Positions 4,388 to 11,583 of a stretch of DNA of 24,842 nt are shown one piece after another. Source of the stretch: a virus. Positions within the stretch are counted from its first letter, which is position 1. Each line of letters begins with the position of its first letter. Location: positions 1 to 24,842 of the IMG/VR virus record IMGVR_UViG_3300030116_001162; one strand, written 5' to 3'. Position numbers and translations under genes: made by a program. The notes beneath the pieces were generated by a model, which made no database searches, had not been told where the DNA came from, and worked only from the letters and a program-made list of their open reading frames with translations.

Positions 4388-5911
4388 TCAATAATAGACA
4401 CGAACTTTTGGATAATAGTCGTCATCGTCGTCATAATCGCCTTCTAAACGTAAGAATCCGCCTTGTCTAAATCGCATAAGTGCTAAAGTAGTTGCATCTA
4501 CGCAATCGTCGTTCTCTCCGTTCGGAAAATCTACGATTTCGTCAATTAATTCTTGTCCCCAGTTCGTATCAGGTACCCAAACTCGGCCTTCTTGGAAAAT
4601 TGCGCTGACCGTATTCAATCTTGCGATCTTATCTTGCCCTTTACTCGGTGAAAAGGTGTTTATCGGGATACCTTGACGCCGTAATTCTTGTGTAAGCGGG
4701 ATACCTGACGCTTTTGTTTCGACAATTACCGAATCAGGCTCCCAATGTTCGTATAACCGCATCGCTTCACGCTTCAATTCTGGAAAATCTAGGCGTTCTT
4801 TTACGCAATCTAACAAAATTATGTGGGCATCGTCCCCAGAATACAGTTCCTCGCCGATTTTACCCTCGGGATAGAACACTCCCCACGTTGTAATCGCCGT
4901 ATAGTCTGCTCGTTCGGACTTTAAAAACGCCGTATCGTAACTTTGGATCAAATAACTACACGAAGGAGGGTTATCGTTCGGCCATTCTTTAATCCATTCT
5001 TTCGGAATAATAGAAATACCCTCGCCTGTAGGCCGTTGCATATACTGCGCAGCCCATTTCGACGGAGGAATCGACGATTTCGTCGCTTCTAATTCTTCTA
5101 ATTTCCAAAATTCAGGCCATAACGGATTACCTGATGGTAATATCGCAGGGAACTCGATGATTTCCCATTGGTCTCCACCTTGTTCTTGAGCCATTCGTTT
5201 GATTAATTTACCCGTTACGTCCTTTTTAGACCAACGAGTCATTACGATAACTATCGCACCTCCTGGCTGTAGGCGCTGACGAGGCCCAGTTTGATACCAT
5301 TCGTAGGCTTCTTCTAACGCTTTATCCGAAAAAGCGTCTTGTTCAGAGTGAGGGTCGTCAATAATAAACAAATCAGCACCACGACCCGCGAGTGCACCGC
5401 CGATACCAGCCGCATAATATTCCCCGCCTTGCGAAGTCGTCCATTTACCCGCGCTTCGAGAGTCAGCTTTTAGTTGAGTAGCCGGAAATATCTCAGCGTA
5501 ATCGTCACTTTCGATTAAGTCACGGACTCTACGACCGAAATTAATCGCGAGGTCAGCGGTATGCGTTGCTTCAATAATTTTAAGTTTAGGGCGTTTACCT
5601 AGTAGATATGCAGGAAATAAATACGAAGCAAATTCTGACTTCGTATGTCGTGGGGGCATATTGATTATTAGTCTTTTTGACTCTCCTGAAGCAATCTTGT
5701 CGAAAGCCTCGGCCATCTTTTTGTGGTGTGCACCTGCAATAAACTCTGGCCAAATCGTTTTAACAAAATCGTAAAACGACGCCATAGAACTTTCGCGTTT
5801 TTCACGCTTTTCTAATTCCTCAAGTAGTAACGTAAACTCTTTCGCCTCTTCTTTAGAGAGGTGAGAAAGGTCTACGCTTTTAAGATTTTCGAGTGGATTT
5901 TTTGTTTGCAT
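4388..5911 (-). CDS. terL: Terminase large subunit (packaging ATPase/nuclease)
   Basis: 507 residues with both terminase domains. In the ATPase domain, Walker A-like MPPRHTKS is at about 85-92, Walker B LFIIDDP at 181-187 with the acidic pair, and motif III MTRW at 224-227. The RNase-H-like nuclease domain follows with QSYDTAF (first acidic residue about 326), a VETKASGIPL segment, and DDCVDATTLALM near the C-terminus carrying the last catalytic acids. The enzyme pumps DNA into the prohead through the portal and cuts concatemers. The gene start overlaps the preceding basic-protein gene by 32 bases and lacks an obvious SD. Small terminase lies about 3.3 kb upstream instead of adjacent, separated by head-region genes and a cassette. 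Confidence 0.95.
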   Translation of the reverse strand: MQTKNPLENLKSVDLSHLSKEEAKEFTLLLEELEKREKRESSMASFYDFVKTIWPEFIAGAHHKKMAEAFDKIASGESKRLIINMPPRHTKSEFASYLFPAYLLGKRPKLKIIEATHTADLAINFGRRVRDLIESDDYAEIFPATQLKADSRSAGKWTTSQGGEYYAAGIGGALAGRGADLFIIDDPHSEQDAFSDKALEEAYEWYQTGPRQRLQPGGAIVIVMTRWSKKDVTGKLIKRMAQEQGGDQWEIIEFPAILPSGNPLWPEFWKLEELEATKSSIPPSKWAAQYMQRPTGEGISIIPKEWIKEWPNDNPPSCSYLIQSYDTAFLKSERADYTAITTWGVFYPEGKIGEELYSGDDAHIILLDCVKERLDFPELKREAMRLYEHWEPDSVIVETKASGIPLTQELRRQGIPINTFSPSKGQDKIARLNTVSAIFQEGRVWVPDTNWGQELIDEIVDFPNGENDDCVDATTLALMRFRQGGFLRLEGDYDDDDDYYPKVRVYY

Positions 5912-6176
5912 TTATATATCGACGATAAACTTGAGCTGCGCTTACTTTACCCGCTGCTTTTGCTCGTTGTTCCATCGCTATCGCTGCTTGTATTTTATGT
6001 GCAGGAGTACGTTTAGCTTTTTTAATTTTAGCTACGCTTGCTTGCGCATCTTTGACGGTAGCGAATTTTAATCCGTGGATCGTACCTTTCGGATCTTCGT
6101 CAGTATATAAATCGCTATGTTTTTTACTTTTCGCGGGTTGCCCTTTTTTCCTAGGGATGCGCGGATTTTTAGCCAT
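5880..6176 (-). CDS. Small basic protein upstream of large terminase
   Basis: 98 residues, strongly basic, beginning MAKNPRIPRKKGQPAKSKKH and containing a 'GLKFATVKDAQASVAKIKKA' helix and an HKIQAAIAMEQRAKAAG helix. The compact helical part with flanking basic tails suggests DNA or RNA binding. I recall similar proteins immediately before terL in other marine phages, without a known function. Start overlaps the previous stop as TAATG and the end overlaps terL by 32 bases, so it is co-translated with the packaging motor. A packaging accessory role is inferred from position only. Confidence 0.7.
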   Translation of the reverse strand: MAKNPRIPRKKGQPAKSKKHSDLYTDEDPKGTIHGLKFATVKDAQASVAKIKKAKRTPAHKIQAAIAMEQRAKAAGKVSAAQVYRRYINANKKSTRKS

Positions 6177-6748
6177 TATCTTAATCTTGCGTTATTAAGA
6201 CGTTCCTCGGATATCGGGCCACCTTCGGCCATCATCGTTATTTGATCACGAGTCGCGGGAACCATATCCATCCCAGGAGTCGAAGCCATCATATCTGCTA
6301 ATTGCATCCCGACTCCTTGTATTCGAGGATTCGGATCTTGCATCATCCCCATAACTTGCGGAACACTAAAATAATAAACATCTTCAGGCGTACCTACTGG
6401 CCCACCGCTAGCCATTAATTGACCTGCTAATCCTGATTGTTCTAATAACTGCGCTAATTCTTCTTCAGATAAATTAGCTATCGGATCAGGTTGAGCTGAT
6501 GGTAAAGGAACTTCTTCGCCATATTCCATCGCGGCTAATGCTCGTTCTAATCCCGCAACATCTGTACCTTGTACTTCTTCAGGGATTACATCAGATACAG
6601 CAGAGATATTAGGCGCAGCCCCTTCGATTAATTCACGAAGATTAGCATCTTCACGTGCTCGTTTTTGAGCTTTACGCGCTCTACTAGAACTGTACGCTGT
6701 GGTGGCTGCAGTAGTGCCAATCACAGTAGCTATTATAGCAAAACTCAT
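6176..6748 (-). CDS. Head-region protein with N-terminal hydrophobic segment
   Basis: 190 residues. The N-terminus (SFAIIATVIGTTAATTAYSS, about 2-21) is a hydrophobic helix long enough to span a membrane, followed by a basic patch (RARKAQKRAR). The rest is acidic and Met/Gly/Pro-rich, with repeated 'M-A-x-G-G-P' motifs (MASGGPV, MMAEGGPI). Such motifs are frequent in marine phage structural or ejection proteins by recollection. A hydrophobic N-terminus in a packaging/head cluster would fit an internal virion or ejected protein, but a membrane-anchored assembly factor is equally possible. TAATG overlaps at both ends tie it to its neighbours. Confidence 0.6.
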   Translation of the reverse strand: MSFAIIATVIGTTAATTAYSSSRARKAQKRAREDANLRELIEGAAPNISAVSDVIPEEVQGTDVAGLERALAAMEYGEEVPLPSAQPDPIANLSEEELAQLLEQSGLAGQLMASGGPVGTPEDVYYFSVPQVMGMMQDPNPRIQGVGMQLADMMASTPGMDMVPATRDQITMMAEGGPISEERLNNARLR

Positions 6749-7179
6749 TATTTTACATCCTCGAAATTATCTACGACAAACATCTGCTCAAGTTCTGAAA
6801 TATCTTGAATGTTGTCTGGGTTCGGATGGATAGTAAGTATCGTCGTATCTTCTAAAAAGTATAGTGCGCGTTTCGTATGCGGCTCAGTTTTCATTATCGC
6901 AAAATCTTTATAAACATCTACTTGTTCTTTTTCTTGCATCGTAGATATTACTCGACAATGACCTCCTGCTAAAATCGTAATGTGTTCGTGTAAATGAACT
7001 TGACTTACGACAACAGAACCCTTCAAGCCGTAATATGCTCGAACATAAACTCCCTCGGCAAAATGGTGAGTGTTTATATAAGCAGTGCTCTGGGGAGAAG
7101 TTTCTCGTACAGCATTCATAATCGCTGATTGAAGTTTTTCAATCTTAGCTTTTTGCAGGTCTAAAACCGCTGTAGTCAT
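6748..7179 (-). CDS. Cupin-like small beta-barrel protein
   Basis: 143 residues. The centre alternates short beta strands with conserved His: VYVRAYYGLKGSVVVSQVHL, then HEHITILAGGHCRVIS, PHTKRALYFLEDTTILTIHP. The 'H-H-E-H ... G ... P-H-x-K-R' arrangement is typical of the double-stranded beta-helix (cupin) fold, where His side chains bind a metal. I recall this family in many marine phage genomes as an unannotated or 'cupin' gene. Substrate is unknown; neither an enzyme nor a structural role can be excluded. It overlaps the preceding gene by 4 bases (ATGA) and the next by TAATG. Confidence 0.6.
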   Translation of the reverse strand: MTTAVLDLQKAKIEKLQSAIMNAVRETSPQSTAYINTHHFAEGVYVRAYYGLKGSVVVSQVHLHEHITILAGGHCRVISTMQEKEQVDVYKDFAIMKTEPHTKRALYFLEDTTILTIHPNPDNIQDISELEQMFVVDNFEDVK

Positions 7180-7976
7180 TTATACGATTTACCGTAATAA
7201 CCTTTAGCGTAACTTAATCCACCACCATTAGCTTTTTTAGCAGTAGTTTCAGCTTGTCGGAAATTTTCTTTCGTCGGTGCACCCTTAGATCCTGGCTTAC
7301 GCATCTTCTCACCCGACCCTGCTTTTATCCGCCTACGTTTCGCGGCGATATTTGCATATAATCCTGGGCGACCACCTGCGGCAAACATATCTCCGTCACG
7401 TCGGGCTTTTCTTAAAACGTCTCGCTGGACACGCATCGCTTTTTCTAACGCTTCAGGCGAATCCATATATTCATCCCGACCTTCTTGTAATAAATCTTCA
7501 AACCCTTCTTTAGCCCGTCGTTCTTTTTGTAATTGCGAAAACGATTTTAGAAAATCAGGGAGATCCGCTTCATCTTCCATAGCACGACGAGTATCAATAA
7601 GATCTTGCTCGGATTTCATCCTACGGCCTATTTCCATAATTTCTTCTAGTAATTCTTTTGCAGATTTACCTTTACCCATAGGCCCACCAGCCATAGCCGC
7701 TAATACCCCAGCTTCTGGCCCTAACATCGAACTTAATCCTGGAGTATTACTTAATCGAACAGATAAACTTGATTCGTCAATCGGCCCCGACATATCGCGG
7801 GTTTCTTGCATCGTTAACGTATCTTTATTCGTACTTTCTAACGCACGGAGTAACATCGGAAGATTATCCATAATATCTTCCCCAAGAACCATATCTCCCG
7901 TACCACGTAATAAAGACATTAAGCCGCCCGAACTACCACCAACTTCATCGTCGTAAACCGCTTGCATATCTTCCAT
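7176..7976 (-). CDS. Head-region protein with conserved 'GLYANIAAKRRRIKAGSGEKMR' type C-terminal motif
   Basis: 266 residues from the ATG at 7976, which forms a TAATG overlap with the previous stop and has AAGGTGA 8 bases upstream. The ATG at 7982 is too close to that SD. The N-terminal half is acidic and Met/Leu-rich. The middle is a charged helix (ELLEEIMEIGRRMKSEQDLI). The C-terminus carries a motif found in many marine phages: GGRPGLYANIAAKRRRIKAG, then SGEKMRKPGSKGAPT. Elsewhere that motif occurs as a small stand-alone protein or a tail of virion proteins (recollection). Function is unknown. The basic motif may bind DNA, and its place between small and large terminase genes suggests packaging or head assembly. 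Confidence 0.65.
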   Translation of the reverse strand: MEDMQAVYDDEVGGSSGGLMSLLRGTGDMVLGEDIMDNLPMLLRALESTNKDTLTMQETRDMSGPIDESSLSVRLSNTPGLSSMLGPEAGVLAAMAGGPMGKGKSAKELLEEIMEIGRRMKSEQDLIDTRRAMEDEADLPDFLKSFSQLQKERRAKEGFEDLLQEGRDEYMDSPEALEKAMRVQRDVLRKARRDGDMFAAGGRPGLYANIAAKRRRIKAGSGEKMRKPGSKGAPTKENFRQAETTAKKANGGGLSYAKGYYGKSYK

Positions 7977-8272
7977 TACCATTTCACCTTATCGGCCCAA
8001 TAAGCTGCGCTCATTTTGCCTTTCTTAATGTTTTTACTATGGCGAGCTTTGAAACTCTTACGACGAGCCTTTTGTTTTGCCGACTCACCCTTTTTAGGCT
8101 TACCCGCAGTCTTTACACCCTGTTGACCAAAACGAATCGTTTTAATCTTATCGCCTTCTTTCGCAACAACAATATGGGATTTTTTAGGATGACTCGGGGT
8201 ACGTTTCGGTTTGTTATAGCCCGAAACGCCAGCTCTCGCTAATCGTGGGTCTTTTTTCTTACGTTCGGCCAT
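7976..8272 (-). CDS. Small very basic conserved phage protein
   Basis: 98 residues, more than one third Lys/Arg. Recognisable segments are KKDPRLARAGVSGYNKPKRT, KSHIVVAKEGDKIKTIRFGQ and a C-terminal KARRKSFKARHSKNIKKGKM followed by SAAYWADKVKW. This is a widespread small phage family; I believe it is called DUF6321 but cannot check. The strongly conserved 'SFKARHxKNIxKGKMSxAYWADKVKW' ending is typical. No function is established. It is the first gene of the head block after the cassette at 8340-9235 and has a fair SD (TAGGAT, 7 bases before ATG). Confidence 0.75.
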   Translation of the reverse strand: MAERKKKDPRLARAGVSGYNKPKRTPSHPKKSHIVVAKEGDKIKTIRFGQQGVKTAGKPKKGESAKQKARRKSFKARHSKNIKKGKMSAAYWADKVKW

Positions 8273-8286
8273 AGCGGAATCCTACT

Positions 8287-8331
8287 CGCGAAAATTTTTT
8301 TCGCAAAATTTTTTACGCGAAAAATTTTTTA
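8287..8331. repeat. Three tandem copies of an A-tract/T-tract unit
   Basis: Three head-to-tail copies of about 15 bp, cgc(g)AAAATTTTTT, starting at 8287, 8302 and 8316. Each unit has a CGC core and an A4-5T6-7 tract, nearly palindromic. Such phased A/T tracts bend and easily melt. It lies just upstream of the head-gene block on the minus strand, so an UP-element/promoter or a protein-binding site is possible; an unwinding element is another option. Confidence 0.75.
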
Positions 8332-8516
8332 TGGTGCGTAGCAAAAGTAGATCCGAAAAAGAGGCTGGATTCAGGTAGTGGCGGGTGGGTGGGTGCCTTG
8401 CGGCACTTTTGGGGGTATGCCCCCCTAGCCTAGCTAACCGCGAGCCGTAGGCGAGCGCGCCTTGCGCCCCTTAGTTATATTGGTAGGGCTTAGTTAACCT
8501 GTTAGCCAGCTAACCT
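8332..8516. other. Non-coding, hairpin- and CTAG-rich border of the cassette
   Basis: No gene seen. The segment contains a G-rich run (GGGTGGGTGGG at 8383-8393), a hairpin gtgcc/ggcac (8393-8406), a ggggg-tatg-ccccc hairpin (8411-8424), a GC-rich stretch with gcgagccgtaggcgagcgcg, and TAGCTAAC/GTTAGC repeats that recur on the far side of the cassette around 9062-9079. It probably marks one boundary of inserted DNA. Confidence 0.5.
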
Positions 8517-8541
8517 AAAAAAGGGTACACACGGTACCCTT
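8517..8541 (-). terminator. Rho-independent terminator of the cassette gene
   Basis: On the minus strand AAGGGTAC - CGTGT - GTACCCTT forms an 8-bp perfect stem, followed directly by four further T. It lies 20 bases past the stop of the gene at 8562-8978. Confidence 0.85.
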
Positions 8542-8561
8542 AACTAGCTAGTTAGTTAAGC

Positions 8562-8978
8562 CTAGCTGAACGTGGCAAGCTGTGCCTTAACCGCCTTGTT
8601 ACCCTTACCCCATGCAGTTTTACCTAGCAAGCGGTCGCGGTAGTGTAGCAATATGGTGGCAACGTCTTGGTTATAGGCATCGCCACTAGCGCGTACCCAT
8701 AAGCCTTTAGTCACTAAGCTATCGTTAATAGCTTGGACATCTAACGCGCCGCCACCTAACGCTAGCCACTCATTCATAACCAGTTGAATCTGGCGAGGAA
8801 TGTTAGCGGTAATAACGTCTAAGGCTAGGGCTGGGCTAAAGTCAATCTTGCCCGACATACTGCTAGCAGGTTTAGCAAAGTTAAACCCTGCGTTATCCTT
8901 AATGTGCGGCGTTGTACCTTTAGGCATAACGTCAGCGGCAGTAGTGGCAGTGGCTAGTTTTTGGTTTTTAGTAGTCAT
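8562..8978 (-). CDS. Unknown 138-residue protein in a moron-like cassette
   Basis: Not recognised. I chose the ATG at 8978 (MTTKNQKLATATTAADVMPK), which has TTAGGA about 9 bases upstream; the GTG at 9002 would lie inside the leader hairpin. The first 50 residues are Thr/Ala/Pro-rich and probably disordered. The rest is helical with a conserved-looking core (IPRQIQLVMNEWLALGGGAL) and a Trp-containing tail (LHYRDRLLGKTAWGKGNKAV). There is no signal peptide or membrane segment. Codon use (many GCT, CTA, TTA, GTT, TAG-containing dicodons) differs from the neighbouring phage genes. The gene has its own promoter and terminator, unlike its densely packed neighbours. This suggests independent acquisition and a host-interaction or exclusion role, which is inference. 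Confidence 0.75.
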   Translation of the reverse strand: MTTKNQKLATATTAADVMPKGTTPHIKDNAGFNFAKPASSMSGKIDFSPALALDVITANIPRQIQLVMNEWLALGGGALDVQAINDSLVTKGLWVRASGDAYNQDVATILLHYRDRLLGKTAWGKGNKAVKAQLATFS

Positions 8979-8998
8979 TATAAAATGTCCTAATTGTG

Positions 8999-9017
8999 CC
9001 ACCCAGGTATTGGGTGG
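8999..9017 (-). promoter_or_regulatory. Leader hairpin upstream of the cassette gene
   Basis: CCACCCA - ATACC - TGGGTGG (minus strand), a perfect 7-bp stem with a 5-base loop. It lies between the -10 box at 9027-9032 and the ribosome-binding site, so it falls in the 5' untranslated leader or acts as an operator near the transcription start. Confidence 0.6.
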
Positions 9018-9026
9018 ATGCGTCTT

Positions 9027-9054
9027 ATTATACGCACTTGACTAACTAGCGCAA
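9027..9054 (-). promoter_or_regulatory. Sigma-70-type promoter of the cassette gene
   Basis: On the minus strand the -10 box is a perfect TATAAT (9032-9027). A weaker -35 box TTGCGC (9054-9049) is separated from it by 16 bases. It is placed about 50 bases before the start codon at 8978. Host RNA polymerase should be able to use it. Confidence 0.7.
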
Positions 9055-9203
9055 CCCCTAAATAGCTAGCTAGCTAACTATTAATCTAACCAGTCTACAC
9101 TGCCGCTGGCTCTAACGGGTCGCCTCCGTCGCGCTCGCTAACGGGTCCAATGAGGCGCGCGCTCGCTGGCTCGCTGGCTGCGTCGCTCGCTGCGTGAATG
9201 AGT
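9055..9203. repeat. CTAG-rich and GCTCGCTGG-type short repeats
   Basis: Non-coding. Contains TAGCTAGCTAGCTAAC (9063-9078), two copies of TAACGGGTC (about 9114 and 9140), and a run of gctcgctggctcgctggctgcgtcgctcgct (about 9150-9190) made of a repeated GCTCGCTGG-like unit. CTAG tetramers are usually rare in bacterial DNA but are dense here and across the cassette up to 8430. Confidence 0.6.
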
Positions 9204-9222
9204 GGGTGGGAGGGTGGGTGGG
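9204..9222 (+). other. G-quadruplex motif (five GGG runs, one-base loops)
   Basis: GGGTGGGAGGGTGGGTGGG on the plus strand: five consecutive G-triplets separated by single T or A bases. This is the tightest possible class of parallel quadruplex motif. It lies 14 bases past the stop codon of the small terminase gene, and the G-rich strand is the template strand for leftward transcription. Confidence 0.8.
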
Positions 9223-9235
9223 CGCGGCCCCCCTG

Positions 9236-9811
9236 CTACTTTTCTATGTAGTCGATCGATCGATCATTCGATTCGTCGATCGATCCGATCCGGTTCGTAA
9301 TTTGTCCCTCGATCGTTTGCGGCACACGTTTCGTGATGAGTTGTCCGAGTCGATCGATCAGTTGGTCTTTGGATAGTGAGTCGATCTTCGCGGTCAATAC
9401 TTCACGTCGATCGATGTATAAACCTCCGACCTTCCCTCGGTGGATCTCTGCGGTGATGGCAGCGTTAATCTGTCCCTGATCGCGTGCCTCCTCACGCAAG
9501 TCATGAAGCGCGGATAGGTGGCCCTCCATGGAAACTCTATCACGCTCCGCCTCCTTGATTTCCTGGTCGATCAGATAGTTTCGGAGTAGCGGGTTGTGAT
9601 TGAGTAACACACTGCCTTGTCTTTTGGCAGCGGCTCTGTTCTTCGTATAACCAGCTTTGACAGCTGCTTCGGTAGCATTTTGGCCTTTCAGATACTCTCG
9701 AGCGAACTTCTTTTGCTTCGGGTTTAGCGGATGCCACTTCTTACCATCGGGGTCGATGAAGCCGTTACCATCGTCAGATGGGATCATGGGAGTGTACTGT
9801 AGCTCTTTCAT
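9236..9811 (-). CDS. terS: Terminase small subunit (Terminase_2-like)
   Basis: 191 residues. Residues about 29-75 carry the typical small-terminase helix-turn-helix region: LNPKQKKFAREYLKGQNATE, AAVKAGYTKN, RQGSVLLNHNPLLRNYL. It matches the Terminase_2 pattern 'LTpKQe-FV-eYl...NATqAAiRAGYS...A...GsrLL-np-V'. The middle is a charged helix (oligomerisation) and the C-terminus is encoded by TCGATCGA repeats (SIDESNDRSIDYIEK). The protein recognises viral DNA and recruits the large subunit. No strong SD precedes the ATG at 9811, and Met9 is an alternative start. It is separated from large terminase by about 3.3 kb. Confidence 0.88.
   Translation of the reverse strand: MKELQYTPMIPSDDGNGFIDPDGKKWHPLNPKQKKFAREYLKGQNATEAAVKAGYTKNRAAAKRQGSVLLNHNPLLRNYLIDQEIKEAERDRVSMEGHLSALHDLREEARDQGQINAAITAEIHRGKVGGLYIDRREVLTAKIDSLSKDQLIDRLGQLITKRVPQTIEGQITNRIGSIDESNDRSIDYIEK
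9252..9415. repeat. Cluster of TCGATCGA repeats inside terS
   Basis: TCGATCGATCGATC at 9252-9265, TCGATCGATC at 9276-9285, TCGATCG at 9309-9315, TCGATCGATC at 9350-9359 and TCGATCGAT at 9407-9415: five clustered palindromic repeats within about 165 bp in the 3' half of the gene. In several phages the packaging initiation site lies within the small terminase gene, so this cluster is a candidate pac site. It may alternatively be a simple-sequence expansion. Confidence 0.6.
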
Positions 9812-10146: not shown

Positions 10147-10638
10147 TTAGTACAGAAGCTCGAGCACGGTCAGATCTGTCAATACCCATCTCATTCCTAA
10201 GTCTGGGTCATTCGTAGCTATTCCGTGTTCGTCTTCAATCTGAGGGCCATCTAAGTTATTGACTAACGTCCAGACATAAATGTCGTCGTCTTCGATCAGG
10301 GGTATAAAATGTTCGAACACAAGTGGCTTTACGGCGTCGGGTAACTTTTTGTATTGCGCACCCCTCATAATCAACAATCCTTTACCGTCCGTCTCATTTG
10401 TATGTAACCAAATGACTATCGCACCTTGATCAAACTCCTGTCCTTTTCGGACTAGGGTGTGTCCTAACTGGTGCAAGTTAGGTCGAACGAACTCCCCGTC
10501 TTTTTCTAACAGGTCGGGGACTATATCTTCTGGGTAAAAGGTGTACGTGAAGTCGAAAAACTCTTCGCGCTCGCGAACACCACTAGCTGAGATCAGTGTC
10601 TCTACTTTATCGAGAGTTTGGAAAAGCTCCTTTATCAT
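10147..10638 (-). CDS. Hypothetical protein (163 residues)
   Basis: Not recognised. It begins with a helix (IKELFQTLDKVETLISASGV), then alternates strands and helices. It is acidic overall (EHFIPLIEDDDIYVWTLVNN), with a cluster of Asp/Glu near 110-145. No signal peptide or metal-binding motif. It has a strong ribosome-binding site (AGAAAGGAGAATAGA before ATG), is preceded by the conserved 16-bp element and a hairpin, and is followed by the terminator at 10105-10127. It is the last gene of the small-gene block. Confidence 0.7.
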   Translation of the reverse strand: MIKELFQTLDKVETLISASGVREREEFFDFTYTFYPEDIVPDLLEKDGEFVRPNLHQLGHTLVRKGQEFDQGAIVIWLHTNETDGKGLLIMRGAQYKKLPDAVKPLVFEHFIPLIEDDDIYVWTLVNNLDGPQIEDEHGIATNDPDLGMRWVLTDLTVLELLY

Positions 10639-10659
10639 TCTATTCTCCTTTCTATGGGT

Positions 10660-10687
10660 AAAAATCCTAGGGCGCGTAGCCGCGCCC
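10660..10687 (-). terminator. Terminator-like hairpin in intergenic unit A
   Basis: Minus strand GGGCGCG - GCTA - CGCGCCC (perfect 7-bp stem), then TAGGATTTTT. It sits between the conserved element at 10714-10729 and the ribosome-binding site of the next gene. The T-run suggests an intrinsic terminator or attenuator; an mRNA-stabilising leader hairpin is the alternative. Confidence 0.6.
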
Positions 10688-10713
10688 GTAGCCTATAGTA
10701 AGGCGGGAAAAAA

Positions 10714-10729
10714 CGAGGGTAAAGCACTA
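10714..10729 (-). promoter_or_regulatory. Conserved intergenic element, copy A
   Basis: Minus strand TAGTGCTTTACCCTCG; its TAG is the stop codon of the gene at 10727-11158. Two bases differ from the other copies. TACTATAGG follows with 17 bases between TTTACC and TACTAT, which would fit a sigma-70-type -35/-10 pair. Confidence 0.65.
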
Positions 10730-11158
10730 AGCCGAGACTCTGACATCTCCGTAGAGTTCTACCTCGCTCCATTCTGTAACGTAGGTCATCTCTAAATAGT
10801 CTTCGTGCATATCGTCGGGGAAAATATCTTTAAAGGTTGTGTAATGCAGTGGGTTACGTCGGTCGCCCCATGGCTTACAGTCGTACCGTAAATCATCTCT
10901 CACGGTCGTTACATAATTAAAATGTAACGAGATCTTGTACTTTCGATCCGTCCTAAAGGGCACCCATGGGTCTGTAATCGTAGCAATCACGTCGGGGTAA
11001 TTGTTTCGGTAAAGCACAATCCAAGTTATTTGGTTTTTAATCAGCCGTTTGGGGTCTACTTTCCACGGGCCTGTCGACTTCCATTTGGCGTTATCGATCC
11101 GAGTTCTATCTAAGTTTTTCGTAAACCCGTCGGTGCGTATCGCTAATACATCAGTCAT
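10727..11158 (-). CDS. Hypothetical protein (143 residues)
   Basis: Not recognised. It is aromatic-rich (many W, Y) and predicted mainly beta, with segments such as ITWIVLYRNNYPDVIATI and KYKISLHFNYVTTV. The acidic C-terminus (YLEMTYVTEWSEVELYGD) suggests a small compact soluble protein. It has an AGAAAGGAGAATAT ribosome-binding site. The stop codon TAG is the first triplet of conserved element A. Its neighbours are equally unknown small genes, as is usual for phage host-takeover regions. Confidence 0.65.
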   Translation of the reverse strand: MTDVLAIRTDGFTKNLDRTRIDNAKWKSTGPWKVDPKRLIKNQITWIVLYRNNYPDVIATITDPWVPFRTDRKYKISLHFNYVTTVRDDLRYDCKPWGDRRNPLHYTTFKDIFPDDMHEDYLEMTYVTEWSEVELYGDVRVSA

Positions 11159-11180
11159 ATATTCTCCTTTCTAAATCAAT

Positions 11181-11198
11181 GCGCCCCTTTCGGGGCGC
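11181..11198 (-). terminator. GNRA-loop hairpin after the 125-residue gene
   Basis: Minus strand GCGCCCC - GAAA - GGGGCGC, a perfect 7-bp stem with a GAAA tetraloop, 7 bases past the stop at 11206. It lacks a clear T-run, so it may be a weak terminator or an mRNA end-protecting/processing structure. Confidence 0.55.
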
Positions 11199-11205
11199 GG
11201 GTAAG

Positions 11206-11583
11206 TTAGCCACTCCAGGGCTGGTCAGTCCAACGAGTCGCTTCGTAATTATTTACTGGCCCGTAAGTCCAAATGTCAAACTTGTAATGTTTTCCAGGGT
11301 AATACAACTCTCCGTCTCGCGGGTCGTTCCACTTAAATGTTATTACGTGGCAACAACCTTGGAAGTGGTAGTGGTCAGCATCTGTCACATTTGGGTGGTT
11401 ACATATCTCAATGATGAGTTCTTCTGGTTCGCAGGGTAACTCAGCAACGTTGAGTCTTTCGATTTCTTGTTGGTCAGCTTTTTGCATTTCTGGCCAACTG
11501 CCATCGCTCTTTTCCCAAAAGCTATCGTTTAAGAAATGTTCTATCAACTCGGGGCCGAGGTCTATCGTAATTAGATCTCTCAT
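11206..11583 (-). CDS. Hypothetical protein (125 residues)
   Basis: Not recognised. It starts MRDLITIDLGPELIEHFLND. The middle contains Cys and His residues (C51, C62, then H-Y-H-F-Q-G-C-C-H around 72-80), which could bind a metal but do not form a standard zinc-finger spacing. It is Trp-rich toward the C-terminus. The start has AGAAAGGAAGAAAGT before ATG. It is preceded by conserved element B plus a terminator-like hairpin and followed by a GNRA hairpin, so it may be a single-gene transcription unit. Confidence 0.65.
   Translation of the reverse strand: MRDLITIDLGPELIEHFLNDSFWEKSDGSWPEMQKADQQEIERLNVAELPCEPEELIIEICNHPNVTDADHYHFQGCCHVITFKWNDPRDGELYYPGKHYKFDIWTYGPVNNYEATRWTDQPWSG

What the first reader, a model, noticed from the sequence alone, without database searches (positions are those of the whole stretch)
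8332..9235. Self-contained moron-like cassette between small terminase and head genes
One unknown gene has its own TATAAT promoter (9027-9054), leader hairpin (8999-9017) and strong terminator (8517-8541), is set off by non-coding flanks of about 180-250 bases, and differs in codon and oligomer composition (CTAG-rich). TAGCTAAC-type repeats and GGGTGGG runs occur on both sides. Neighbouring genes are all tightly overlapped. This is the classic moron layout; morons often encode superinfection exclusion, anti-defence or host-fitness functions. The protein matches nothing I know.
Basis: partly seen in the sequence, partly recalled or inferred. Interest (0 to 1): 0.7.

Follow-up and report, generated by a model that had tools for sequence, protein, structure and literature searches.

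The report
Swappable one-gene slot in marine phages
Next to the DNA-packaging gene of a group of uncultured, mostly marine phages lies a slot with its own on and off signals that is filled in every relative checked, but with very different versions of one small, probably DNA-binding protein that the phages swap with each other, as expected of a gene caught in an arms race with hosts or rival phages.

Summary
The self-contained gene unit is real: promoter 9027-9054, leader hairpin 8999-9017, 138-codon gene 8562-8978 on the minus strand, terminator 8517-8541. It is not a classic moron. In about 45 related contigs with a complete terS-to-head interval, the slot is never empty. It always holds a gene, of at least 13 sequence classes, on either strand. 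Class changes at least 25 times on the terS tree. Between phages with 93-99% identical terS, homology covers promoter, leader hairpin and the first few codons, vanishes over the gene body, and resumes at the stop codon. Each class is under purifying selection (dN/dS mostly 0.07-0.25). For most forward-strand pairs of one class, synonymous divergence is 2-20 times that of terS, so alleles are older than, or foreign to, the backbone. The model shows a disordered basic tail plus a winged-helix-like domain (weak match, Z about 4). Best reading: a hypervariable allelic slot for a small, probably DNA-binding effector, exchanged through conserved flanks and diversified by conflict with host defence or competing phages. 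Architecture and swapping are well supported; function is inferred. Closest precedents: P22 'ant moron', SPP1 morons. PHROGs, Pfam, NCBIfam, PADLOC, PDB and 50,697 phage records hold no match.

The parts
9236..9811 (-). terS, small terminase subunit (Terminase_2): conserved left boundary of the slot
   Evidence: Pfam PF03592 E 8e-14, PHROG 51 E 1.5e-18
8979..9235 (-). upstream flank with tetranucleotide-period repeats (CCCA, GAGC/CAGC, CTAG), shared between different classes in one clade
   Evidence: periodicity peak 8951-9250; pairwise homology
9027..9054 (-). promoter: TTGCGC, 16 nt, TATAAT
   Evidence: same layout, often with better -35, in the relatives
8999..9017 (-). 5' leader hairpin CCACCCA-ATACC-TGGGTGG
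   Evidence: covariation in 4 of 7 pairs, constant loop; folding
8988..8991 (-). AGGA, probable ribosome-binding site
   Evidence: sequence; purine-rich site in the leaders of the relatives
8562..8978 (-). slot gene, class D, 138 aa
   Evidence: purifying selection dN/dS 0.02-0.19 within the class
8922..8978 (-). codons 1-19, disordered basic tail; N-terminus shared with another class (G, L021); the 5' swap boundary lies here
8565..8852 (-). codons 43-138, predicted winged-helix-like body, the part that is replaced between classes
   Evidence: model m416ad11d1173, PDB comparison
8515..8541 (-). intrinsic terminator, 8-bp stem and T tail; 3' homology between classes resumes at the stop codon just before it
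8273..8514 (-). downstream flank with AAC-N6-YTAAG-like repeats, CCCACCC run and AT-rich element (8287-8334) before the head operon
7976..8272 (-). 98-aa head-side gene (PHROG 7595): right boundary of the slot
   Evidence: position in relatives

Best explanation
This is an obligate, hypervariable one-gene slot. A constant expression frame (host-type promoter, leader hairpin, ribosome site, first codons of a disordered basic tail, stop codon, terminator) carries one of many alternative bodies of a small protein whose folded part looks like a winged helix. Shown by sequence comparison: the frame, the never-empty slot, class turnover, body-only replacement between near-identical phages, reversed alternative units, purifying selection within classes. 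Inferred: phages meeting in one cell exchange the body by ordinary recombination in the conserved flanks; host RNA polymerase can transcribe the unit without phage factors and the hairpin protects the 5' end of the message; the protein binds DNA or a nucleoprotein complex and counters a variable opponent, either host defences or a competing phage or satellite, so that rare alleles are favoured. Within this reading I put about 0.45 on host anti-defence, 0.3 on phage-phage or phage-satellite exclusion, 0.25 on a housekeeping DNA role.
For: Slot filled in every complete interval. 13 classes; 25 changes of class on the terS tree against 12-13 needed for one origin each and 34-40 in shuffles; 12 changes of orientation. 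Body-only swaps: W/L021, W/L019, L035/L031, L054/L057, L060/L062, L005/L058; sliding identity shows a dip over the slot against backbones near 97-100%. dN/dS 0.07-0.25 within most classes; slot dS 0.59 vs terS 0.10 (W/L018), 0.30 vs 0.03 (L004/L005), 0.26 vs 0.02 (L060/L065), 1.44 vs 0.20 (L032/L043); reverse class A moved between clades (slot dS 0.44-0.55 vs terS 0.90-0.98). One family member at most per genome record, always in the slot. Solved-structure matches of the model with Z 3 or more are, apart from one designed lattice protein, winged-helix domains (Fur/Zur, linker histone, MCM). Most classes are basic. Same hairpin with different classes.
Against: Winged-helix matches are weak (Z 4 at best; Foldseek E above 3), and the class G model gave no clear match. 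Some classes are not basic (I, reversed C). No known anti-defence or exclusion protein resembles it, though PADLOC holds defence proteins, not counter-defences. Another variable region lies about 0.9-1.7 kb upstream of terS, so part of the turnover may be general mosaicism. One unrelated class (I) shares the slot.
Confidence: 0.6

Rival explanations
1. Classic moron: an extra gene with its own signals inserted between terS and head genes, present in some relatives and absent in others.
For: Own promoter and terminator, variable content, unknown small protein.
Against: No empty site in about 45 complete slots; the incomplete ones that can be read (L075, L084, L069) also carry such a gene. Most classes share a frame and N-terminus, so they look like alleles rather than independent insertions.
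Confidence: 0.12
2. Immunity repressor: the protein represses its own and same-class phage genomes, and classes are immunity groups.
For: Winged-helix-like fold, many classes on one backbone, P22 ant moron precedent with Mnt/Arc in a late-operon slot.
Against: No Phage_integrase in 12 records; promoter, hairpin and flanking repeats are the same for different classes in a clade, so no class-specific operator near the gene; no class-specific dispersed repeats of 10 or more bases outside the slot (a single operator would be missed).
Confidence: 0.1
3. Packaging or replication partner: the protein acts with TerS or at an origin/pac site next to terS, and diversity tracks recognition sites or satellites that steal the packaging machinery.
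For: Always adjacent to this type of terS and missing from 79 loci that have the 98-aa head gene on other backbones; repeat-rich DNA beside terS; SPP1 has an origin in a bracketed unit in its head cluster.
Against: terS and flanks hardly change when the class changes; no GC-skew turning point at the slot.
Confidence: 0.15

Closest known systems
'ant moron' of P22-like phages (PMC2629481)
   Same: Variable, usually independently expressed region at one fixed place in the late operon; ten types in sixteen genomes; small DNA-binding regulators (Mnt, Arc) and a superinfection exclusion gene.
   Different: There several genes, absent in some phages, in temperate phages; here one gene, never absent, body-only replacement within a constant frame, no integrase seen.
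SPP1 morons and the oriR-containing unit between head genes (PMC6316719)
   Same: A unit bracketed by transcription signals interrupts the head gene cluster of a lytic phage.
   Different: The SPP1 unit holds an origin and three moron genes; no allelic series of one protein is described.
Winged-helix DNA-binding domains (Fur/Zur, linker histone H1, MCM C-terminal domain)
   Same: Predicted order of helices and strands of residues 43-138 and best structural matches.
   Different: No sequence similarity; Z only about 4; metal-binding and oligomerisation features of Fur not examined.
HTVC023P-type pelagiphages (HTVC027P) and phages DSL-LC04, 023Pt_psg01
   Same: Closest annotated TerL (about 50-60% identity).
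   Different: The three records searched lack any slot-family gene; terS lies in another gene order.

Membership tests
phage moron | independent transcription unit (own promoter and terminator) | tested here: met
   sequence and conservation only, no expression data
phage moron | addition relative to related phages (empty sites exist) | tested here: not met
   about 45 complete slots, none empty
phage moron | content differs between related genomes | tested here: met
   13 classes, 25 changes on the tree
phage moron | expressed from prophage / benefits lysogen | not testable with these tools
   no integrase in 12 related records, records incomplete
winged-helix DNA-binding proteins | winged-helix fold | tested here: inconclusive
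   AlphaFold2 pLDDT mostly 80-90 for residues 61-138, best Z 4.0; class G model no clear match
winged-helix DNA-binding proteins | binds DNA | not testable with these tools
   only basic charge computed
temperate phage immunity region | class-specific operators | tested here: inconclusive
   no class-specific repeats of 10 or more bases outside the slot; flanks equal between classes; a single operator would be missed
temperate phage immunity region | integration functions in the genome | tested here: not met
   PF00589 absent from 12 records of 26-59 kb, controls positive; records may be incomplete and serine recombinases were not searched
known anti-defence or defence proteins | sequence similarity | tested here: inconclusive
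   no PADLOC, Pfam, NCBIfam or PHROG family with a known function; these libraries cover counter-defences poorly

The most novel reading that the evidence does not exclude
A phage counterpart of a polymorphic recognition locus: one obligatory gene in a constant expression frame whose alternative bodies are kept across phage lineages by rare-allele advantage, because each body defeats a different host defence or excludes phages (or satellites) of other types.
Probability: 0.25. Interest if true: 0.75.

Novelty: new variant of a known kind. Interest (0 to 1): 0.52.

Why it matters
A locus that is always filled, in one copy, but with alleles older than or foreign to the backbones that carry them is what strong, frequency-dependent conflict would produce. 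It marks, in uncultured and mostly marine phages, a single small gene whose alleles could be tested one by one for anti-defence or exclusion activity, and the constant frame gives a sequence handle for mining many more alleles.

Tried and rejected
Protein libraries for the window protein: PHROGs, Pfam, PADLOC, NCBIfam, PDB sequences, 50,697 phage records: no significant match. Weak PHROG matches of some relatives (phrog_21035 E 0.001, phrog_15904 E 0.006) have no known function. Lactococcus phage matches at E 0.3 not significant. Bacterial genome scans with a slot protein and with terS found no relative, so the host is unknown. Autoregulation by protein-specific binding to the leader hairpin: rejected, since one hairpin serves several classes. 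Class-specific iterons or operators in the flanks: rejected for forward classes for the same reason. Dispersed class-specific sites: none of 10 or more bases. Origin at the slot: no skew turning point. Phage-type RNA polymerase: search uninformative because no control rang. Phase-variable inversion: reversed units differ in sequence from forward ones; invertases were not searched for. A search with an RNA model that I had not built failed. Assembly chimaeras: unlikely, because the same classes with the same boundaries recur in independent metagenomes.

Full report
Observation. The gene at 8562-8978 on the minus strand encodes 138 residues and is bracketed by a promoter (TTGCGC-16-TATAAT, 9054-9027), a leader hairpin (8999-9017), an AGGA ribosome site and a terminator (8541-8515). 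The -35 element is a poor match in the window, which is why the automatic scan missed it, but relatives show TTGAC or TTGCG at about the same place. CTAG is strongly enriched in the gene (16.8 per kb; 14 of the window's 73 copies lie in 8400-9100), whereas codon usage is ordinary for this side of the genome. The flank towards terS has the strongest four-base periodicity of the window. The flanks are 257 and 289 nt.

What the phage is. TerS, TerL and portal are identified by profile; the window also encodes a family A DNA polymerase and thymidylate synthase. The nearest annotated TerL proteins are from phage DSL-LC04, phage 023Pt_psg01 and Pelagibacter phages HTVC027P and HTVC023P at about 50-60% identity. 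Of these, HTVC027P, DSL-LC04 and 023Pt_psg01 were searched and have no slot-family protein. The host is unknown. Twelve related records of 26 to 59 kb lack an integrase.

The slot. A terS search brought 80 related contigs. Between terS and the next head gene there is always a gene. In the intervals that are complete, about 45 after removing repeated contigs, none is empty; incomplete ones (L069, L075, L084) also begin such a gene. Twelve of the 80 contigs end within about 110 nt after terS, which fits a place where assemblies break because populations differ or repeats intervene. The genes fall into 13 classes at 40% identity. Class A and class I, and one member of class C (L064), lie on the opposite strand. 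On a terS tree of 60 phages the class changes at least 25 times (34-40 in shuffled labels) and the strand 12 times. The window's class D occurs in more than one terS clade, as do classes A, F and G. Each large record has exactly one slot gene, found in the slot.

How the bodies are exchanged. Pairs with nearly identical terS but different classes show the same pattern. W against L021 (class G): homology until 58 nt into the gene, none over the body, homology again from the last 6 nt. L035 against L031: until 52 nt in, again from the last 5 nt. L054 against L057: until 7 nt in, again from the last 4 nt, i.e. the stop codon. L060 against L062: until 70 nt in, again from the stop codon. So promoter, hairpin, first codons, stop codon and terminator are kept, and only the body is replaced. 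W against L009 (class A, reversed): terS and the head genes are 93-100% identical, but the whole unit, from 52 nt after terS to beyond the terminator, is replaced by a different unit on the other strand. The shared 5' part encodes the N-terminal tail, for example MTKSNTKSAPEQTAR in classes B, D and F of one clade, and near-identical MTTKTKLATATTAADVMPK and MNTKTKLATATTAADVMPK in classes D and G of another.

Age and selection. Within classes, dN/dS is mostly 0.07-0.25, so these are functional proteins. For most forward-strand pairs of one class, synonymous divergence at the slot is 2 to 20 times that of terS: 0.59 vs 0.10 (W/L018), 0.30 vs 0.03 (L004/L005), 0.26 vs 0.02 (L060/L065), 1.44 vs 0.20 (L032/L043). 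L024/L027 is an exception (0.55 vs 0.58). The reversed class A shows the opposite between clades, 0.44-0.55 vs 0.90-0.98, which suggests a transfer between clades after they split. Sliding identity puts the dip over the unit, promoter to terminator, against backbones near 97-100%. Alleles thus arrive from diverged phages, or are older than the backbones. Either way the locus turns over faster than its neighbours, although the small-gene region 0.9-1.7 kb upstream of terS is also variable. All this rests on metagenome contigs; the recurrence of the same classes and boundaries in independent samples argues against chimaeras.

The leader hairpin. In the window's clade the seven-pair stem has four pairs with changes on both sides and none broken, and the ATACC loop never changes. 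The same hairpin stands before classes D, F, G and M, so it belongs to the expression frame rather than to one protein. Most other leaders also contain a short hairpin close to the presumed start of transcription, but folding energies are not better than shuffled for all of them: the class A leader and one leader of another clade are not. A 5'-end protective hairpin is the simplest reading; this is inference.

The protein. AlphaFold2 gives a disordered tail (residues 1-35) and a domain of moderate to good confidence. Solved-structure matches at Z 3 or more, except one designed lattice protein, are winged-helix domains, but the best Z is only 4.0 and Foldseek alone finds nothing significant. 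One uncharacterised phage protein in the viral library has probability 0.94 at E 0.06. Class G has a longer, better-predicted model with no clear match. Most classes are basic. I therefore call DNA binding likely but unproven.

Function. Constant frame plus variable body, one copy per genome, deep alleles shared by lineages and swaps between near-identical phages together point to a variable opponent. Host anti-defence and competition between phages or with satellites fit best; an immunity repressor and a packaging partner fit less well, because operators, flanks and terS do not change with the class and no integrase is found. The P22 ant moron, a late-operon slot with ten types in sixteen genomes that carries small repressors and an exclusion gene (PMC2629481), and the bracketed units in the head cluster of SPP1 (PMC6316719) are the nearest precedents. 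The present slot differs in being obligatory, single-gene as a rule (L018 has two genes), and swapped by body only.

Verdict. The kind of thing is known (a variable late-operon cassette), and this is a new variant with strong comparative evidence and an untested function.

Noticed in passing
window 10147-11583: The small-gene region 0.9-1.7 kb upstream of terS (163-, 143- and 125-aa genes) is also replaced or missing between near-identical relatives, a second variable region.
   Followed up: partly
window 8951-9400: Strong tetranucleotide-period repeats (CCCA, CTAG, CGAT) reach into the 3' end of terS, which holds 15 GATC sites in 576 nt; similar repeats (GACG, GAGC) stand beside terS in relatives. 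A packaging or recombination site is possible.
   Followed up: partly
window 8287-8334: AT-rich element of repeated GCGAAAATTTTTT before the head operon, conserved in most relatives although the slot differs; perhaps a late promoter or unwinding element.
   Followed up: no
L018 5599-5904: A second, unrelated gene (101 aa) sits between the class D gene and the terminator: a true addition inside the slot. No Pfam or PADLOC match.
   Followed up: partly
L010, L012, L020, L023, L026, L048, L050, L052, L056, L068, L073, L082: Twelve of 80 contigs end within about 110 nt after terS, i.e. at the start of the slot.
   Followed up: partly
window 5880-7179: The 98-aa gene before terL and the 143-aa gene are missing or diverged in close relatives (L003, L013), so the head cluster has further accessory genes.
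   Followed up: no
L051 2166-2771 (-), L053 6889-7494 (-): Class I, 201 aa, acidic and unrelated to the other classes, fills the slot in reverse orientation.
   Followed up: partly
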